Position numbers and translations under genes: made by a program
Part shown: positions 4,305 to 12,337 of the stretch, one piece after another
Layout: each line of letters opens with the position of its first letter
Position numbering within the stretch: position 1 is the stretch's first letter
Source: Enterococcus mundtii
GTDB lineage: Bacteria; Bacillota; Bacilli; Lactobacillales; Enterococcaceae
Direction of reading: 5' to 3'
Assembly: GCF_003957375.1 (NCBI RefSeq)
Contig: NZ_CP025473.1
Location: forward strand, 1,513,501 to 1,577,500
DNA length: 64,000 bases
Notes under the pieces: generated by a model
The model's input: the letters and a program-made list of their open reading frames with translations, nothing else
Database searches by the model: none
Told to the model about the DNA's origin: nothing

Positions 4305-4976
4305 TTAGTTGGCCTTTTCCATCGTCATTTGTTGTAACACATGACGGTTCCTCATAAAATCGATCACGATCAGTTTTTTTTCATCTTCACGTTTTACTAC
4401 TCGAAAGGTATCTTGTAAAGGGAATGTTAACTTCTTAGATTGGATTTCCTTCAAGCGTACAAAACGACGGATCAACGAGAGCAATTGTGGAAACTGGATC
4501 GATGTGTGTAATAATTCTGGATATTTTTTTAGTAACTGCGTTGTTTTAAACAAATTTCTTTTTCGGCTGATTTGTTTTAAAAAACTTTTTAATATCTTTT
4601 GCTGCCGCTGAAAGATTGAAAGAGAGCCTTCTTCATCGATCTGGTAACGCATCTGACGTTGTAGATCTTTCACCGATAGATGTACTTCAGTGGTACCCGA
4701 CTCTACGTTGATTCCTTGAGGGAAAAGTTCTGAAATTGCTTTGTCCCACTCATTTAATGATACTTCAAGATAGTCATTCAATGGCAGTTGAAGTTCTTGA
4801 ACAAAAAATTGCTTCGCAGCTTGAATGCCACCTTGTTCATAAATTTCCCCAATCGTCAACCCTTCTAAATGAAACTCCGGCGAAAAATGCAAGACTGTTT
4901 TTTGTTCATCGATTTGCGTATAGATGAATGTCGACCGTTTGAGAATCGTATCTTTTAAAACAACTAAAAAATTCAT
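4305..4976 (-). CDS. Divergent LytR-CpsA-Psr-like domain protein lacking a membrane anchor
   Basis: A protein of about 224 residues. The order of elements resembles an LCP domain: MNFLVVLKD and FIYTQIDE strands, then IYEQGGIQAAKQFF, then PLNDYLEVSLNEWDKAI, then the RQQKILKSFLKQI helix that in LCP enzymes follows the GDFGRM-type loop. However, the catalytic arginine segment (SIPRDT in active enzymes) is replaced by FSPEFHLEG. There is also no N-terminal transmembrane helix if translation starts at the ATG at 4976, which has GGGGGA upstream. It is therefore either an inactive paralogue or my remote-homology reading is wrong. The start at 5018 lacks a ribosome-binding site. Confidence 0.45.
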   Translation of the reverse strand: MNFLVVLKDTILKRSTFIYTQIDEQKTVLHFSPEFHLEGLTIGEIYEQGGIQAAKQFFVQELQLPLNDYLEVSLNEWDKAISELFPQGINVESGTTEVHLSVKDLQRQMRYQIDEEGSLSIFQRQQKILKSFLKQISRKRNLFKTTQLLKKYPELLHTSIQFPQLLSLIRRFVRLKEIQSKKLTFPLQDTFRVVKREDEKKLIVIDFMRNRHVLQQMTMEKAN

Positions 4977-5186
4977 TCTTTTCCCCCTTTTTTCTACTAC
5001 AAAATAGCATATTTTCAACTGTTTGTGTGCAAATATGCTGAAGATTTCATAAAATCTTATTCTTTGAATTTTATGCGCATATAAAAAACTTTTTCATGGC
5101 TCTATTAGTTTTTTTATTCATGTATTTGATATTTGGGAGATTCGATAACCGTTACCGAGTATCTGAATCTAAAGGTGTCTGACAAC

Positions 5187-6440
5187 TTATAGATTCATTT
5201 CGGCGCGCCTTCTGATTTTTTGCTCGTTAATAAGCCTTGTATTCGTATCATTACTATTTGTTTTACCTATATTTTTAATTGTTGAAAAAATGCTATTTCC
5301 CGAAGGGGCCTGTGTAAGCTGTGAGACGTTGATTGCTGTCGTTATTTCCGCGTTTTCTAAGGTAGTTTCCAATGGATGCTCATATATTAAATTCTCCACA
5401 TTAACTACTTTCATCACAGCAAGAACAAACAATAGGTCGCCGTTTCCTAGTTGGTCAGCTAGACTTCTTTTCATGGGTGCGCGCTCAAAAAAGTTTCGTC
5501 CTAATCCAATTATCAAGAATACAAGCCATTAGCATCTCAGCATCGGTTATTTGAAGGTTTGCTTTTAACATTTTGTCAGTCAGTACAGCATTCAAGACAG
5601 CTTATTTTGTGACAGCCGGCAATTTTAACATGTCACTTACATTTTCCACAAAAGAATTAACCCCCTCGCCATGAATTAGCTTCAGAAATTTTTTCGTATC
5701 TCTTTCGAAGATCTTCTCCACTATTCCTGAAACCTATCGGACTCCTTAGATAACTTATCAAATCGTCCGATGATGCGACAATATGGGTCACTTCGTGCAT
5801 AAGAGTATCTTTGGGACTTGGCTGCACTTGAATCCTTGGTCTAGTAGCTAGATCCACATGAAAAACTATCAAGGATGAAAATAATTCGACATTCAGGGGC
5901 AAACCGCATGACAAACGCATGTGCACTCATGAATCCTTTAATTTGTGAGTAGTGATTCTTTGTCACCTCATCATGCAGTAAATCAGTAGAAACAAGCCAA
6001 ATATTTTTAAAATTAAAATCCTCTATTTGTTGAAGAAGCTGTGCACTTTTTTTCAACTGATAACAAGCGCTTCATAATTTTTTTTATATTTGTTCTTAAT
6101 TTTCTGCATCACCTCATCTAAACCTTTCGATTAATTAAGCTCCCGCAGGCGTAGTTGCAGGAGTCTCTTCTTTTGATAGTTCCTTCTCTATAAATTTCTG
6201 GAAATCTTCCTGCGCATTTTTAAACTCTACAGTAAATTATTCTAGAAATCGTTTGAGTGATTCTAGCGCTTTAGTGATATCGATACCAGAAAATACACGA
6301 TAATTCGGATTTGAATCTTCGGGGAAATCCCCTTTAATCGCTGAAGTAATTAGCTCTCTTAATTTAGCTTCATCACTAATTACAGAAGATGGGAATTCTG
6401 GGACAAACTCTTGATATAGGTTCTACCTGTCTCTGAAATC
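5187..6440 (-). pseudogene. Heavily decayed gene for a putative aspzincin-like metalloprotease toxin
   Basis: On the minus strand a series of coding-like blocks in shifting frames can be joined with at least three stops and several frameshifts. The first block (about 6440-6150) reads VPEFPSSVISDEAKLREL, then KGDFPEDSNPNYRVFSGI, and ends KEETPATTPAGA. The second (6056-5850) reads KKSAQLLQQIEDFNFKNIWLV and AHAFVMRFAPECRIIF. The third (5926-5657) contains MHEVTHIVASSDDLISY, an HExxH zinc site followed by S-x-D-x-x-x-Y spacing reminiscent of M35 deuterolysin-type (aspzincin) peptidases. The fourth (5516-5187) reads GLGRNFFERAPMKRSLADQL and ends at 5187. Some toxins and effectors carry such domains. 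This copy cannot be functional. Confidence 0.5.
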
Positions 6441-6692
6441 ATCAATCCCAAATCATCTAAAGTTTATCTAATCAAAACTTTCTTTATTCATAATTTTAAG
6501 TTATAACCTAAAAAATACTGATCCAGCAAAATAGACAAGGATTTTTGGTAAAAGAAAAAGCCGTAAAAAACTTAAAATAGCACAAGGTCTATTTTGTTTT
6601 TTTCGACTTATTGTCAAAATAAGATTATCAAATTTTAGTATATTTCAAGGTAAGTGCTATTCCGAATTTAGCAACTTGCATTTGGATGAGTT
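6441..6692. other. Intergenic, AT-rich, nothing firm
   Basis: Sequence between the decayed toxin gene and the P-II-like gene. It has a loose inverted repeat AAAATAGAC / GTCTATTTT at about 6529-6597 that could be a weak terminator for the DUF1538 transcript. No open frame with a ribosome-binding site was found. Confidence 0.3.
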
Positions 6693-7066
6693 TCAATTAT
6701 CTTCTAACAAATCTTTCATGTCAACGACTTCGCGATATTGATGGATTTTCGTAATACCAATCACTTTATCGATATCAATACTAAAACAAATACCATTGCC
6801 CGGAACATCGATCTTGATACCTTTTCCGATCGCATCCATCACTTCATTTGTCAAAGTATCTGGTACTAATGTCAGAACGATATCCTTTTCCGGTGAGATA
6901 TCCAACCCTAAGAATTTTCCTGTGTCATGGACTCCAGAACCACGTCCATGTAAAATCGTCCCCCAGATGCGCCAGCCTTCTTTGAGTAATCGATCACATC
7001 TTCCCCAATACCACCATCCACGATCGTGACGATCATCTCGAGATTTAGTGCGACTAAATCATTCAT
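6693..7066 (-). pseudogene. P-II-like nitrogen regulator, single-base frameshift
   Basis: The start at ATG 7066 overlaps the stop of the DUF1538 gene upstream. The first frame reads MNDLVALNLEMIVTIVDGG, then EDVIDYSKKAGASGG, and then derails in a G5 run at about 6958-6963. The continuation in the next frame reads TILHGRGSGVHDTGKFLGLD, then ISPEKDIVLTLVPD, and ends DMKDLLEDN at 6693. Together they make about 124 residues with the order of a GlnB/P-II-like protein: strand-helix, a GRGSG-type loop in the T-loop region, the EKDIVLTLVP strand, then a helix and strand. Restoring one base gives an intact gene, so this may be a sequencing error. It would be the predicted cytoplasmic regulator of the two membrane proteins encoded upstream. 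Confidence 0.7.
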
Positions 7067-7836
7067 TGTTGTTCCTCCATTTGTTGTAATTTTTCTTTGT
7101 TTTTCTGATCTTTTTTGCCTTTTTGTTTATATATGAACCCTAAGACTAATGTCGATAGTATCGGTGTCAATGCGATCATTGCCACCACACCAAATCCATC
7201 AATAATTGGATCTCGACCGTCGATCTGTGTGGCGATTGCCACACTCATAGACAAAATAAAGGTAGAACACATCGGTCCTGTGGCGACGCCACCGTTATCA
7301 AAAGCCATCGATAGAAAAATCTTGTCAACTTTTGCACCTAAGACAAATGCTAAACCATATCCAGGGACCAAGAAATAATAAAGAGAAAAACCAGCTAATA
7401 AGCGCCACATGGACAGACCGACTGCTAAACCGATCCCAATCGAGATCACTGCTAACATTACTTTTGCATGAATCCGACCTTCACTTAATTCTTCGACTTG
7501 TTTGACCATCACATGGATGGCTGGCTCTGCAAAACCTACTAAAAATCCCATAACAAACCCTAAAGGAATCAGGATCTGATTATTCGCTAAAGAAGCAATT
7601 GCACTCCCCAGGTGTTGTCCCACTGGTACATAAGCAATATTTACACCATGTAAAAATAGAATTAATCCGATAGTTGTGATCAAAAAACCTTTCATGATAT
7701 CAAAAAAACGTTTTTTTCTTAATTTAAATGAAAGAAAGTTCATCAGTACAAATAAGATCACGATTGGTGCCACCGCAAGGATGACTTCATATCCGACTTG
7801 TCCAATACCTGTAAAAAAAGTGACCAAAAAATTCAT
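7063..7836 (-). CDS. DUF1538 membrane protein, second of a tandem pair
   Basis: A 257-residue protein with about six or seven hydrophobic segments and a charged C-terminal tail (KQKGKKDQKNKEKLQQ). It shares motifs with its upstream neighbour: GFLVGFAEPAIHVMVKQVEE in the middle and FDNGGVATGPMCSTFIL in the C-terminal half, followed by a GFGVVAMIALTPIL segment. These identify it as DUF1538, a family of uncharacterised integral membrane proteins. Its ATG overlaps the TGA of the first DUF1538 gene (ATGA), and a GGGGGTGAT ribosome-binding site lies inside that gene. A P-II-like gene follows with another overlap. This suggests a two-subunit transporter or channel under P-II control, which is inference. 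Confidence 0.8.
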   Translation of the reverse strand: MNFLVTFFTGIGQVGYEVILAVAPIVILFVLMNFLSFKLRKKRFFDIMKGFLITTIGLILFLHGVNIAYVPVGQHLGSAIASLANNQILIPLGFVMGFLVGFAEPAIHVMVKQVEELSEGRIHAKVMLAVISIGIGLAVGLSMWRLLAGFSLYYFLVPGYGLAFVLGAKVDKIFLSMAFDNGGVATGPMCSTFILSMSVAIATQIDGRDPIIDGFGVVAMIALTPILSTLVLGFIYKQKGKKDQKNKEKLQQMEEQQ

Positions 7837-8516
7837 TGGAAGATCACCCCCAAGATCATGACAGCCAAGATAGGACCAAGTGAGGCAATACCAACCATTC
7901 CAAAGCTATCATTTTCATTTTTCCCTTGGCGGATCATGCTTGTCATTCCACCAGCCAAGGCTAGAATAAACGGAACAGTCACTGGGCCGGTTGTGACTCC
8001 ACCTGCATCAAAAGCAATCGGCATAAATTCGTTACTTGTGAAAAAGGAAGCGATGAGTACCGCAAGATAACCGATCACCATCAATCGATAATACGACAGT
8101 TTAAATACGACTCTTAGTAAGGCAAAAGCTAAAAATACACCAGTTCCCACACTGACTATACCGATCAATAAGACTCGACCAATCTCTCCATCCGAAATAT
8201 CAAATACTTGTTGACCTAATACTTGTACAGACGGTTCGGCAATCGTGATCACGATTCCAATCAGAAAACCCAAACTAATAACGATTGGTAGACTTTTCTT
8301 TTTGATCATATATTTACCGACTAAATCACCAACTTCCATCATCGAATAATCCGCACCAAACAAAAAGAGACTCATACCAACCATCATCATGATTGCTCCT
8401 AAAATGAATCTTCCCATACTTTCAACATCTAATGGTGCAAATACAAAGGTCAGGATAACGATCAATATCGTCATGGGCATGATCGCAATGATTACTTCTT
8501 TAAAATTTTTTCTCAT
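7833..8516 (-). CDS. DUF1538 membrane protein, first of a tandem pair
   Basis: A 227-residue, almost entirely hydrophobic protein that starts MRKNFKEVIIAIMPMTILIV. It shows the paired family motifs AEPSVQVLGQQVFDISDGEIG and FDAGGVTTGPVTVPFIL, each with a counterpart in the following gene, so the two are paralogues. AAAGGAGGAGG precedes ATG 8516. In many bacteria DUF1538 occurs as a single longer protein; here two separate, translationally coupled chains are encoded. It has no recognisable enzyme or ATPase motif. It is first in a transcript with the second DUF1538 protein and the P-II-like regulator. Confidence 0.8.
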   Translation of the reverse strand: MRKNFKEVIIAIMPMTILIVILTFVFAPLDVESMGRFILGAIMMMVGMSLFLFGADYSMMEVGDLVGKYMIKKKSLPIVISLGFLIGIVITIAEPSVQVLGQQVFDISDGEIGRVLLIGIVSVGTGVFLAFALLRVVFKLSYYRLMVIGYLAVLIASFFTSNEFMPIAFDAGGVTTGPVTVPFILALAGGMTSMIRQGKNENDSFGMVGIASLGPILAVMILGVIFQ

Positions 8517-8873: not shown

Positions 8874-9752
8874 CTATTTGACAGAACCAATCATCCCTTG
8901 AACAAATTGTTTTTGTAAAACGAAAAACACGAGTGCAGTTGGTAAGGTCGCAATCACCAGTCCACTCATGATCATACCATAGTCTGGTGTATAGGATGCC
9001 CCCATGGCTGATAATACTAATGGAACTGTTCGTTTATCTGGAGATTGTAACGCCACTAAAGGCCAGAGGTAATTGTTCCAACTACTCATAAACGTGATGA
9101 TCGCCGCTGCGGCATACGTATTTTTAGCTGTTGGTAAATAGACACGAAAGAAAATACTTAATTCTTTAAGACCGTCTAAACGTGCCGCCTCTACTAGGTC
9201 CTTAGGAAAGGATTTCGCGTTTTGGCGGAAAAAGAAAATCAAAAAAGCGGTACTTACTGAAGGTAAGATGACGACTAGAAAACTATTGATTCCTAATATC
9301 GTACCATTCAATTGTGAAAACATCCGATATAGCGGGATCATCAATGCCGCAAAAGGGACCATCATCGATAATAACAAAATATTAAAGACGACTTCTTTTC
9401 TTTTACTCTTATAGATCTCAAAGCCATAACCTGCCATGGAGGAGATCAATAAAGCAAAAATCGTTGTAACCACAGCGATCATTGCAGAATTAAGTAGAGA
9501 GCGTGAAAAATTCAAGTCATTCGAAAAGAGATTTTGGAAATTGATCACTAAATTTTCACCGATCATCAGTTTACCTGAACTAATATCGACTGCTGTATTT
9601 GTCATCCCTAAAATCATCCAAACAAACGGGAAAATTGAAATAAAGGAAACGATGACTAAAGAGGTATATTTAAAAATGCTTAAGAGTAACTGTCCGATAC
9701 TCACTTGCTTTTTTGTAATTGACCGGGGTTGACTACTTGTCATTTCTCTCAT
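8874..9752 (-). CDS. Carbohydrate ABC transporter permease (LacG/GanQ-like)
   Basis: A 292-residue MalG-type inner-membrane permease with six predicted transmembrane segments. It carries the ATPase-docking EAA loop EAARLDGLKELSIFFRVYLP around residue 190 and the family-typical C-terminus FVQGMIGSVK. It is translated from ATG 9752, overlapping the end of the partner permease by four bases. With the upstream permease and the lipoprotein it forms a CUT1-type sugar importer. No ATP-binding gene is present nearby, so a shared MsmK/MsmX-type ATPase encoded elsewhere is expected. The neighbouring alpha- and beta-galactosidases suggest a galactoside substrate. Confidence 0.87.
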   Translation of the reverse strand: MREMTSSQPRSITKKQVSIGQLLLSIFKYTSLVIVSFISIFPFVWMILGMTNTAVDISSGKLMIGENLVINFQNLFSNDLNFSRSLLNSAMIAVVTTIFALLISSMAGYGFEIYKSKRKEVVFNILLLSMMVPFAALMIPLYRMFSQLNGTILGINSFLVVILPSVSTAFLIFFFRQNAKSFPKDLVEAARLDGLKELSIFFRVYLPTAKNTYAAAAIITFMSSWNNYLWPLVALQSPDKRTVPLVLSAMGASYTPDYGMIMSGLVIATLPTALVFFVLQKQFVQGMIGSVK

Positions 9753-10618
9753 TTGCTCTCACTCCCTATTTTAGTTTGAATCACTGATAACAAGACAATA
9801 AATAGTACGATAACGAAAGAAACAGCTGCGGCATAACCAAAATTCGGGGTGAATTTATAACTCAAATTATAGATATATTGTGACAATGTCGTTGTTGCAT
9901 TTGCTGGCCCACCACCAGTGATATTTTGTACCTCATCAAATAATTGCAAGGTACCGATCGTTGAAGTGATCGACGTAAACAAAATGATTGGTTTCAAGTT
10001 AGGTATCGTGATTTTAATGAACTGTTGCCACCTTGATGCGCCATCAATATCAGCAGCTTCGTATATTTCTGGATCGATGTTTTGCATACCAGATAAAAAG
10101 AAAATCATATTATACCCTGTCCAACGCCATGTGATGGAAATAATGATCAATACTTTTGCCCAGAATGGATGAGTCAACCAACCGATCGGGTTATCAATCA
10201 AGCCAATTCCAACTAAAAGGTTATTGATTAAACCTGATTGGGAAAATAAACTTTTCATGATCAAAGAATAGCTGACCATTGAGGTAATACATGGCAAGAA
10301 GATCGCTGTTCTGAACAATCCTTTGAACTTCAATTTTTTATCATTCAATAGATTGGAAATAAACAATGCCAAAAACAACATGACAGGAACCTGTACTAAT
10401 AAGTATAAAAAGGTATTGAAAAATGCTTTACGGAAAGTTGAATCTCCTAACATTCGTTGATAATTTCCTAATCCGTTGAATGTCATGTTTACCGGAGGTC
10501 CACTTTGAAAAGAGGTGATCAGCGCTAACCCCATTGGTATAAAAACTAAAATTGAGATCATGATCACTGGAAGGACTAAAAACGCGTTGCCATTTTTAAA
10601 TAAATCCTTTTGTTTCAT
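9749..10618 (-). CDS. Carbohydrate ABC transporter permease (LacF/GanP-like)
   Basis: A MalF-type permease of about 289 residues. The start is placed at ATG 10618 (MKQKDLFKNGNAF), which follows GTAGGGAATAAT; the longer frame to 10660 has no ribosome-binding site. The EAA motif EAADIDGASRWQQFIKITIP lies near residue 190. The C-terminal half also has the LQLFDEVQNITGGGPANATT segment that is characteristic of CUT1 permeases. It partners with the MalG-type permease encoded immediately downstream and with the lipoprotein at 10974-12263, which is separated from it by a stretch of gene debris. Confidence 0.87.
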   Translation of the reverse strand: MKQKDLFKNGNAFLVLPVIMISILVFIPMGLALITSFQSGPPVNMTFNGLGNYQRMLGDSTFRKAFFNTFLYLLVQVPVMLFLALFISNLLNDKKLKFKGLFRTAIFLPCITSMVSYSLIMKSLFSQSGLINNLLVGIGLIDNPIGWLTHPFWAKVLIIISITWRWTGYNMIFFLSGMQNIDPEIYEAADIDGASRWQQFIKITIPNLKPIILFTSITSTIGTLQLFDEVQNITGGGPANATTTLSQYIYNLSYKFTPNFGYAAAVSFVIVLFIVLLSVIQTKIGSESK

Positions 10619-10686
10619 ATTATTCCCTACTTTCATTACACATATGTTGAAGAAATACATGCCTCACAGAAAGTCAGACAAAATTG

Positions 10687-10950
10687 CTAGTTATTTTCTT
10701 CTAAGCTTTTTACCACTGCCTCAATGATTAGTTCCATCGGACAGAGAATAGCAAACGAGTGGAACTTCTTATTTTTTCGAATACCATTGCTAAAGTTATA
10801 CAGGATAGCTAACGGTGCGAATGTCCCCTATCGACATTTCAATTAATTGCTTATTCTATAAACGATACCTTCAAACGAAAGAACAATACTCTCGTTGATC
10901 CGTTTGAAGAGATCGCCACTTATTTCTTTGTTATTCCATTCATCATAGGT
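10687..10950 (-). pseudogene. Coding-like debris between the lipoprotein and permease genes
   Basis: Two minus-strand blocks look like former protein. The upstream one (10950-10843) reads TYDEWNNKEISGDLFKRINE and then SIVLSFEGIVYRISN before a stop. The downstream one (10827-10687) reads GTFAPLAILYNFSNGIRKNK and then FHSFAILCPMELIIEAVVKS. They are separated by a stop and a frame change, and I see no start codon with a ribosome-binding site. I do not recognise the family. The position inside a sugar-transport operon suggests an extra operon gene that was lost here. Confidence 0.3.
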
Positions 10951-10973
10951 TTACTGTTGACGCTGGATATGAC

Positions 10974-12263
10974 TTAATTGGCTAATTGAGCTTCGACTTG
11001 TTTTTGCGTATCTGCCAAAACTTTGTCTGCTGATTCACCATTGATGATTCGGCTCAAGGATTCCGCCACAACAGATTCAATGGCATAAGTTTCATGACCA
11101 TAGTTCACTTCAGGGATTTCTGCTGTCCATTTTGAAAAGTCATCGAATACTTTTTGATTACTATAGAACTCAGACGGCTGTTGATAAGCTTCTTGGTCAT
11201 TCGCGCTCAACATAGTCGATACTAAACCGATCTCTTCTGCTAATTTGCCCATCAATTCTTCATTCGTTGCGAATGTCTTTTCCAAGAAATCTTTCGCATT
11301 TTCTTCACCAGCTACGCCCTTGATCACATACCAGCCGGCACCACCCAAGTTGGAAGCTTGTGCTTTTTGCATGTTAGCAGGTAGAGCTGGAATCGGTGCG
11401 ATCTTCCACTTACCTGATTGATCTTCTGCCCCTTGAATGGTTGAAGAATACCAAGCACCAGTTGGTGTAGAAGCAACAGCTCCTGATTGAACCGCCGTAA
11501 CCCCAGCATTCCAGTCAGATGTTTGTTCGACTAGATCTTCTTTAAGCAAGGTAGCAAAGAGTTCTAACCCATATTTTAATGATTCATTATTTTCGATCGT
11601 CACTGTTTCTCCATCTTCCGAGGTATACCATTCTCCGGCTTGTTGCATGATCATGCGCACACGACCTAAATCGGAAGGATTGACTTCAGAGATTTTTTTT
11701 CCTGTTTTTTCTTTGACATCTCGTGCAACTTGTAAATAATCATCCCATGTTAAGTTCTTTATATCTTCCTCTGAATAACCAGCTTCTTCTAAGATATCTG
11801 TCCGATAGAAATTGGCTGTCACACCTGAGTCAAAAGGTACACCGTAAATTTTATCGTCAACTTTGTTGACTGCAAATTTATATGCGGCAAAGTTATTTTC
11901 ATCCACAATACCTGTCAAATCAGCAAACGCATCTGGGTAAGAGGTCAGATACCCTTGGATACGGTAGTCTTCGATCAACACAACATTTGGTAAACCATCG
12001 GTATTTCCGCTAGCTAATGCCGTATTCAGTTTTTGTACGATATCATCTTGAGACATCGTTACTACTTCTACGTCAACATCCTCATTTTCGTAAAACTCTT
12101 TGGCTTCATTGACGGCTTTGATATTAAAGGCTTCATCCCATGCCCAGACCGTTACTTTATCTTCGTTTCCCGAAGCATCACTGGAAGAATTGCCACACCC
12201 GGCAAAAAGTGTAACTGCTGCTGTTAGGACGAAAGCACTAGCTAAAATTTGTTTTATTTTCAT
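10974..12263 (-). CDS. Sugar ABC transporter substrate-binding lipoprotein
   Basis: A 429-residue extracellular solute-binding protein of the MalE/CUT1 type. The start is ATG 12263, after a GGGTGGG site. A lipoprotein signal peptide ends in LFAGC, so Cys20 or so should be lipidated. The mature protein shows VTVWAWDEAFNIKAVNEA near the start, VYGVPFD-like sequence (KIYGVPFDSGVTANFYRTD) and the WTWDDY-equivalent NLTWDDYLQVARDVKEKTG. It is the first gene of the importer. A promoter with an embedded CcpA-type site lies just upstream, and a divergent two-component system is encoded on the other strand. Confidence 0.9.
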   Translation of the reverse strand: MKIKQILASAFVLTAAVTLFAGCGNSSSDASGNEDKVTVWAWDEAFNIKAVNEAKEFYENEDVDVEVVTMSQDDIVQKLNTALASGNTDGLPNVVLIEDYRIQGYLTSYPDAFADLTGIVDENNFAAYKFAVNKVDDKIYGVPFDSGVTANFYRTDILEEAGYSEEDIKNLTWDDYLQVARDVKEKTGKKISEVNPSDLGRVRMIMQQAGEWYTSEDGETVTIENNESLKYGLELFATLLKEDLVEQTSDWNAGVTAVQSGAVASTPTGAWYSSTIQGAEDQSGKWKIAPIPALPANMQKAQASNLGGAGWYVIKGVAGEENAKDFLEKTFATNEELMGKLAEEIGLVSTMLSANDQEAYQQPSEFYSNQKVFDDFSKWTAEIPEVNYGHETYAIESVVAESLSRIINGESADKVLADTQKQVEAQLAN

Positions 12264-12308
12264 TTTTATACCCACCCTTTTTAGTGTTTGTTTTTTTCTT
12301 ACATGCTT

Positions 12309-12337
12309 ATCATAACAGACTTGCAAACGTTTTCTTC
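12309..12337 (-). promoter_or_regulatory. Promoter of the galactoside importer with overlapping cre-like site
   Basis: The minus strand carries TATGAT at 12314-12309, with a weak -35 (GAAGAA) 17 bases upstream. A 14-base palindromic AGAAAACGTTTGCA at 12322-12335 fills the spacer and touches the -35 box; it fits a CcpA catabolite-responsive element. The weak -35 suggests activator dependence, plausibly on the adjacent YesN-type regulator. Confidence 0.55.

What the first reader, a model, noticed from the sequence alone, without database searches (positions are those of the whole stretch)
6693..8516. Two translationally coupled DUF1538 membrane proteins with a P-II-like regulator: a candidate undescribed transport system
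Seen: two overlapping paralogous membrane genes sharing AEPxxxV and FDxGGVxTGP motifs, followed by an overlapping P-II-like gene. Established: P-II proteins bind membrane transporters such as AmtB and respond to ATP/ADP/2-oxoglutarate; DUF1538 has no assigned function. Inference: a heteromeric transporter or channel for an unknown substrate gated by a P-II-like protein.
Basis: partly seen in the sequence, partly recalled or inferred. Interest (0 to 1): 0.75.

Follow-up and report, generated by a model that had tools for sequence, protein, structure and literature searches.

The report
Salt/proton antiporter with dedicated P-II regulator
Two paired membrane proteins of a known but little-studied salt/proton exchanger family are encoded together with a P-II-type regulator in nearly every locus examined, in bacteria and archaea, which suggests a widespread regulatory switch on cell salt balance; in this particular genome the regulator gene is broken.

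Summary
Window 8516-7063 (-) encodes two paralogous DUF1538 proteins, and a P-II-like gene follows; both junctions are 4-base ATGA overlaps. The P-II frame is disrupted in this genome; relatives carry intact copies. DUF1538 is not functionless: UmpAB of Halomonas zhaodongensis, a DUF1538 pair, is a demonstrated heterodimeric Na+(Li+,K+)/H+ antiporter (PMC5484666). The window pair is a distant relative, far below the UmpA/UmpB equivalog cut-offs. Among 15 genomes of the window's genus, PF00543 is found in 7 of 8 with DUF1538 (the eighth is this broken copy) and 0 of 7 without: there it travels with the antiporter. Also found: fused DUF1538 goes with two or more P-II domains, single-gene DUF1538 with one; the two halves have opposite charge bias (antiparallel), and single-gene forms little, hinting at dual topology. 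Residues of the classic ATP/2-oxoglutarate site are missing, so the ligand is open. Direct P-II gating is inferred, not shown.

The parts
7833..8516 (-). UmpA-like DUF1538 subunit (first gene, 227 aa), predicted N-terminus inside
   Evidence: PF07556 E 2.4e-66; charge bias +9
7063..7836 (-). UmpB-like DUF1538 subunit (second gene, 257 aa), predicted N-terminus outside
   Evidence: PF07556 E 1.3e-64; charge bias -15
6908..7066 (-). N-terminal part of the frame-disrupted P-II-like gene
   Evidence: intact orthologues in relatives
6693..6905 (-). C-terminal part of the frame-disrupted P-II-like gene, in another frame (open further upstream than the listed TTG)
   Evidence: intact orthologue L032:4021-4395 matches PF00543 at 28.0 bits, cut-off 25
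7833..7836 (-). 4-base ATGA overlap between first and second DUF1538 genes
7063..7066 (-). 4-base ATGA overlap between second DUF1538 gene and P-II gene

Best explanation
The two DUF1538 proteins form an antiparallel heterodimeric monovalent-cation/proton antiporter of the UmpAB kind. Each subunit has seven membrane helices, two of them broken at conserved Glu-Pro and Asp-x-Gly-Gly motifs that probably line the cation/proton path. The co-translated P-II-like protein is a dedicated cytosolic regulator that docks on the antiporter and switches it according to a small ligand, as GlnK does for AmtB and SbtB for SbtA. Shown here: family membership, gene overlap, near-universal co-occurrence in the samples, opposite charge bias of the halves, conserved acids, P-II fold of an intact orthologue. 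Shown by others: antiport activity of a distant pair. Inferred: that this pair transports the same ions, that P-II binds it, and which way it switches. In the sequenced strain the P-II frame is disrupted, so the antiporter may run unregulated there, unless the break is a sequencing error.
For: PF07556 on both proteins; best NCBIfam matches are UmpB/UmpA at 80-99 bits. UmpAB antiport activity and heterodimer by co-immunoprecipitation (PMC5484666: abstract, sections 5, 6 and 13, found passages). P-II adjacent in 210 of 214 loci, and in 191 of the 195 that lie outside the 19 loci from which the P-II HMM was built; P-II on the 5' side within 600 bases in only 4 of 207. In the genus, 7 of 7 other DUF1538+ genomes have exactly one PF00543 match, the adjacent gene, and 0 of 7 DUF1538- genomes have any. 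Pfam P-II above cut-off on 7 of 8 intact neighbours tested; five annotated plasmid records name the neighbour 'P-II family nitrogen regulator'; the fold of the L056 protein matches GlnK1, CPII and SbtB. Opposite K/R bias of first and second halves. Glu in helix 3 in 144 of 145 domains and Asp in helix 6 in 145 of 145. P-II regulation of transporters is an established mode (PMC10710835, passages). DUF1538 stands in a table of Pfam features tied to growth pH in a machine-learning study (PMC13255231, one passage).
Against: The window pair scores 80-99 bits against UmpA/UmpB cut-offs of 490/500, so transport of the same ions is an extrapolation within the family. UmpAB worked in E. coli with only umpA and umpB supplied, so its own P-II is not needed for activity (E. 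coli has P-II proteins of its own, control). Two loci with room downstream lack P-II (L076, L274). A review remarks that P-II regulation seems restricted to transporters that can work as trimers; the oligomeric state here is unknown. The P-II gene is broken in the very genome under study.
Confidence: 0.57

Rival explanations
1. The DUF1538 pair transports something else (ammonium, bicarbonate, an organic ion), and the antiport seen for Halomonas UmpAB is a side activity or a specialised branch.
For: Large sequence distance from UmpAB; known P-II partners carry ammonium, nitrate/nitrite, urea and bicarbonate; many hits come from gut and anaerobic bacteria rather than halophiles (titles).
Against: The one biochemically tested member in the papers I found is a cation/H+ antiporter. 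Conserved membrane Glu and Asp in every clade suit cations and protons. The DUF1538+ genomes of the window's genus have no other PF00543 match, which argues against a link to general nitrogen control.
Confidence: 0.25
2. The P-II protein does not touch the transporter; the genes are merely co-transcribed and P-II acts on another target.
For: No interaction data. P-II proteins can have several targets.
Against: Gene overlap, adjacency in 210 of 214 loci, joint presence and absence in the genus, and the match of fused and single DUF1538 with two and one P-II domains are hard to explain without a physical partner.
Confidence: 0.15
3. In this strain the locus is decaying: the frame break is real and the operon is on its way out.
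For: Frame disruption; 7 of 15 genomes of the genus have no DUF1538 match; the 1.7 kb behind the P-II gene holds only short ORFs.
Against: Both DUF1538 genes are intact with all motifs; a small sequence error would look the same.
Confidence: 0.4

Closest known systems
UmpAB of Halomonas zhaodongensis (DUF1538 two-component Na+(Li+,K+)/H+ antiporter, PMC5484666)
   Same: Two overlapping genes for paralogous DUF1538 proteins, seven predicted membrane segments each; same Pfam family
   Different: 80-99 bits against equivalog cut-offs of 490/500; the paper's text has 0 occurrences of P-II, PII or GlnB; antiport not tested for the enterococcal branch
AmtB-GlnK
   Same: P-II gene next to its transporter gene; P-II fold
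   Different: Different transporter family; classic P-II has a longer T-loop and ligand residues that are missing here
SbtA-SbtB (bicarbonate transporter with PII-like SbtB)
   Same: A PII-like protein assigned to one ion transporter; SbtB and CPII are among the fold matches
   Different: SbtA belongs to another transporter family; ligand here unknown
DUF606 and UPF0016 families (PMC3962082 passages, PMC4067407 abstract)
   Same: Single-gene, paired-gene and fused forms with halves of opposite orientation
   Different: UPF0016 has three membrane spans per half (abstract), against seven here; DUF606 not checked; no P-II partner appears in what I read

Membership tests
DUF1538 (PF07556) | Pfam gathering score of 22.6 bits | tested here: met
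   217.8 and 223.5 bits, full-length matches
UmpAB equivalogs (NF041627/NF041628) | NCBIfam cut-offs of 490/500 bits | tested here: not met
   80-99 bits; ten other DUF1538 proteins (four pairs L208, L166, L062, L084; one fused L104; one single L207) score 78-158 bits
UmpAB-type antiporter | Na+(Li+,K+)/H+ antiport by the co-expressed pair | not testable with these tools
   needs vesicle assays
UmpAB-type antiporter | Two adjacent paralogous 7-helix genes with overlapping stop/start | tested here: met
   seven helical elements per half in the model of a fused homologue, L104; the window proteins themselves were not modelled
P-II (PF00543) | Pfam gathering score of 25 bits | tested here: inconclusive
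   the two window fragments give no match, but the gene is broken; the intact orthologue L032 scores 28.0
Classic P-II (GlnB/GlnK) | T-loop with GxGxQKG, B-loop GDGK/R, terminal RxR | tested here: not met
   alignment with two canonical P-II proteins (L170, L171): shorter T-loop, Ile where they have the B-loop Lys/Arg, no RxR (motif meanings recalled)
P-II-gated transporters (AmtB-GlnK, SbtA-SbtB) | Direct binding of P-II to the transporter | not testable with these tools
   no complex prediction available
Antiparallel duplicated membrane proteins (DUF606/UPF0016 type) | Halves with opposite K/R bias | tested here: met
   means +5.9 (A) and +7.1 (N) for first halves, -8.7 (B) and -9.0 (C) for second halves, 66 domains each; window +9 and -15
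Dual-topology proteins | Near-zero K/R bias in single-gene members | tested here: inconclusive
   13 bacterial singles range -3 to +3, 2 archaeal +1 and +2; but the six L207-like ones are all -3, and some archaeal paired subunits are weak too (L263 A +2, B -2)

The most novel reading that the evidence does not exclude
A whole branch of the P-II family has been recruited as the dedicated gate of a cation/proton antiporter and has nothing to do with nitrogen: it senses a different ligand, is the only P-II in the enterococci that carry it, and was often doubled when its transporter was fused. The transporter began as a seven-helix dual-topology protein with one P-II, larger than the dual-topology proteins I can recall, and then duplicated and diverged into antiparallel pairs, split or fused.
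Probability: 0.4. Interest if true: 0.78.

Novelty: new variant of a known kind. Interest (0 to 1): 0.6.

Why it matters
P-II proteins are known as nitrogen and carbon sensors that act on a short list of transporters (in the passages of the 2023 review PMC10710835: Amt, Nrt, Urt, SbtA; 0 occurrences of DUF1538). DUF1538 is found in 101 of 299 genomes drawn from the window's phylum, 8 of 198 from a Balneolaceae genome's phylum and 31 of 196 from a Methanoculleus genome's phylum. If P-II gates it, a nucleotide or other signal would be tied to pH and salt balance in all these, which can be tested with a two- or three-gene operon in E. coli. The series of single, paired and fused forms is also a natural record of how an antiparallel transporter may have evolved.

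Tried and rejected
Rejected: 'DUF1538 has no function'. Rejected as too simple: 'P-II domain number equals DUF1538 domain number'. Among 209 distinct loci, all 102 fused loci with a P-II have two or more domains (100 two; L214 three; L116 four, in two genes), and 15 of 16 single-gene loci have one (the sixteenth, L139, is cut by a contig end); but paired genes have one P-II in 46 and two in 41 loci.

Literature: searches listed no paper that I could see linking DUF1538 or UmpAB to P-II. I opened passages of four of the papers that hold DUF1538 or UmpAB (PMC5484666, PMC13255231, PMC10030654, PMC12093952) and of PMC7143216, PMC6516651, PMC3412718 and PMC10710835; the other listed papers were not opened. 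The library holds open-licence papers only.

Rows dropped or chosen: the tally leaves out the window's own locus L055 (broken P-II) and L215 (the stretch held no DUF1538). In the draw from the window's phylum I examined 62 loci from 62 of 101 positive genomes (30 best plus 32 picked by me from the listed matches). Five single-gene loci were added because they are single. The trees use 74 loci picked by hand. L214 and L051 were left out of the P-II residue alignment. Sets may share species; 5 loci with identical DUF1538 were removed for the architecture counts. The P-II HMM was built from 19 loci of the first set. ORF starts were taken as the first possible start, so overlap lengths are inflated and not used.

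Full report
What is there. On the minus strand, 8516-7833 and 7836-7063 encode two paralogous membrane proteins of 227 and 257 aa that overlap by four bases. A third gene begins at 7066, overlapping the stop codon of the second, again as ATGA. It reads as a P-II-like protein, but in two frames: one ends near 6908, the other runs to 6693. The fragments alone match no P-II model, and the genome as a whole has no PF00543 match. A congener, L032, has the gene intact (124 aa) and it passes the Pfam P-II cut-off, 28.0 against 25 bits. Whether the break is real or a sequence error cannot be told from one assembly. Named relatives with the closest copies are Enterococcus (L056-L061), so the window is probably enterococcal (inference).

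The transporter family is not unknown. UmpA and UmpB of Halomonas zhaodongensis are a DUF1538 pair; together, not singly, they restore salt tolerance to E. coli KNabc at 0.2 M NaCl, form a heterodimer by co-immunoprecipitation and show pH-dependent Na+(Li+,K+)/H+ antiport (PMC5484666: abstract, sections 5, 6 and 13 and found passages). NCBIfam's best matches for the window pair are UmpB and UmpA, but at 80-99 bits against cut-offs of 490 and 500. The window pair is therefore a distant relative: it may work like UmpAB, but it is not filed as UmpAB. In the held library 5 papers contain DUF1538 and 7 contain UmpAB with antiporter. Of these I searched four for P-II and found 0 occurrences; the rest were not opened.

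I scored DUF1538 loci with an HMM built from the intact P-II neighbours of 19 relatives: 23 of 23 in the order of the window, 77 of 80 named genome loci, 62 of 62 examined from a draw over the window's phylum, 7 of 7 further loci from the phylum of a Balneolaceae genome, 5 of 5 extra single-gene loci, 29 of 30 from the phylum of a Methanoculleus genome, 7 of 7 plasmid records; together 210 of 214. Without the 19 loci used for the HMM it is 191 of 195, and the weakest best score is 59 bits. Two misses (L092, L127) end at a contig end right behind DUF1538; L076 and L274 are real misses. P-II lies on the 5' side within 600 bases in only 4 of 207. Public annotation agrees where it exists: five of seven opened plasmid records are annotated there, and all five list 'P-II family nitrogen regulator' directly behind DUF1538 (88 and 89 carry no annotation). 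Within the window's genus, 8 of 15 genomes have DUF1538; 7 of those 8 have exactly one PF00543 match, the adjacent gene, and the eighth is the broken window copy; none of the 7 genomes without DUF1538 has a PF00543 match. Over all 58 relatives PF00543 is found in 23 of 24 genomes with DUF1538 and 11 of 34 without; in G024 and G045 the match counted is not the adjacent gene.

Architecture. DUF1538 occurs fused (about 500 aa), as two genes, or as a single gene. Among 209 distinct loci, fused forms with a P-II always have two or more P-II domains (102 of 102), as a tandem protein of roughly 215-280 aa or as two genes; single-gene forms have one (15 of 16, the other cut by a contig end); paired genes have one (46) or two (41). 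The paired-plus-one form is that of the enterococci, of most archaea examined (26 of 30 distinct) and of the two alphaproteobacterial plasmids. The DUF1538 domain tree separates first halves, second halves and single-gene forms, except that both halves of L214, on long branches, fall with the singles. The P-II tree has few columns; the enterococcal proteins form one clade (support 99), but their place among the P-II domains of the fused systems is unresolved.

Topology and mechanism. A model of a fused homologue (L104; 42 sequences; mean pLDDT 88.5, pTM 0.87) has seven helical elements per half, with helix 3 broken at the Glu-Pro motif and helix 6 at the Asp-x-Gly-Gly motif. Counting Lys+Arg by loops, first halves favour N-inside (means +5.9 for A, +7.1 for N; range 0 to 11) and second halves N-outside (-8.7 for B, -9.0 for C; range -17 to -2); 13 single-gene forms lie between -3 and +3. 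The window pair scores +9 and -15. This is the pattern of antiparallel pairs descended from a dual-topology protein, as described for DUF606 (PMC3962082, passages) and UPF0016 (PMC4067407, abstract). Cautions: the six L207-like singles are uniformly -3, the ranges touch, and some archaeal paired subunits are weakly biased as well. Glu of helix 3 is kept in 144 of 145 domains, Asp of helix 6 in 145 of 145; I infer that they form the cation/proton site.

The P-II protein. The protein of a named enterococcus (L056) models as a P-II fold (28 sequences; mean pLDDT 78, pTM 0.68), and Foldseek returns GlnK1, CPII, SbtB and other P-II proteins from E 2.7e-6 downwards in rank. Against two canonical P-II proteins the group has a shorter T-loop and lacks the B-loop lysine/arginine and terminal arginines (their roles in nucleotide binding are recalled). 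It is unlikely to bind ATP and 2-oxoglutarate in the classic way; AMP-type ligands, as for SbtB, or others remain open. Known P-II-regulated transporters named in a 2023 review are Amt, Nrt, Urt and SbtA, and the review remarks that this mode seems limited to transporters that can act as trimers (PMC10710835, passages). The DUF1538 case would widen that list.

Conclusion. The most likely reading is an UmpAB-like monovalent cation/proton antiporter with its own P-II regulator. The family is known; its coupling to P-II, the domain-number pattern and the single-gene forms I did not find described in the searches named under Tried and rejected. Binding, direction of control, ligand and ions for this branch are inferred.

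Noticed in passing
window 5018-6693: About 1.7 kb between the P-II gene and the next gene (4305-5018) holds only short ORFs; in relatives L033 and L037 the same two genes are about 130 and 155 bases apart, while in L032 and L035 the ORF list also shows no intact gene right behind P-II.
   Followed up: no
window 8874-12326: Two sugar-type ABC permease genes and a binding-protein-like gene precede the DUF1538 operon on the same strand (names from memory of such sequences); the order is kept in several congeners (L032-L037) but not in L038, L039 or L044, so a functional link is unlikely.
   Followed up: partly
L214:4124-7143: A fused DUF1538 protein of 626 aa followed by a 380-aa protein with three P-II domains, on very long tree branches.
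   Followed up: no
L116:6728-8248: Two successive tandem P-II genes behind one fused DUF1538 gene.
   Followed up: no
L049, L052, L053: P-II precedes instead of follows the fused DUF1538 gene in three loci of the window's order.
   Followed up: no
L041:5751-6458 and L049:3301-3963: These P-II neighbours match NF045581, the PG0541 family 'transporter-associated protein', very weakly (E 0.03 and 0.06), perhaps another P-II-like group tied to transporters.
   Followed up: no
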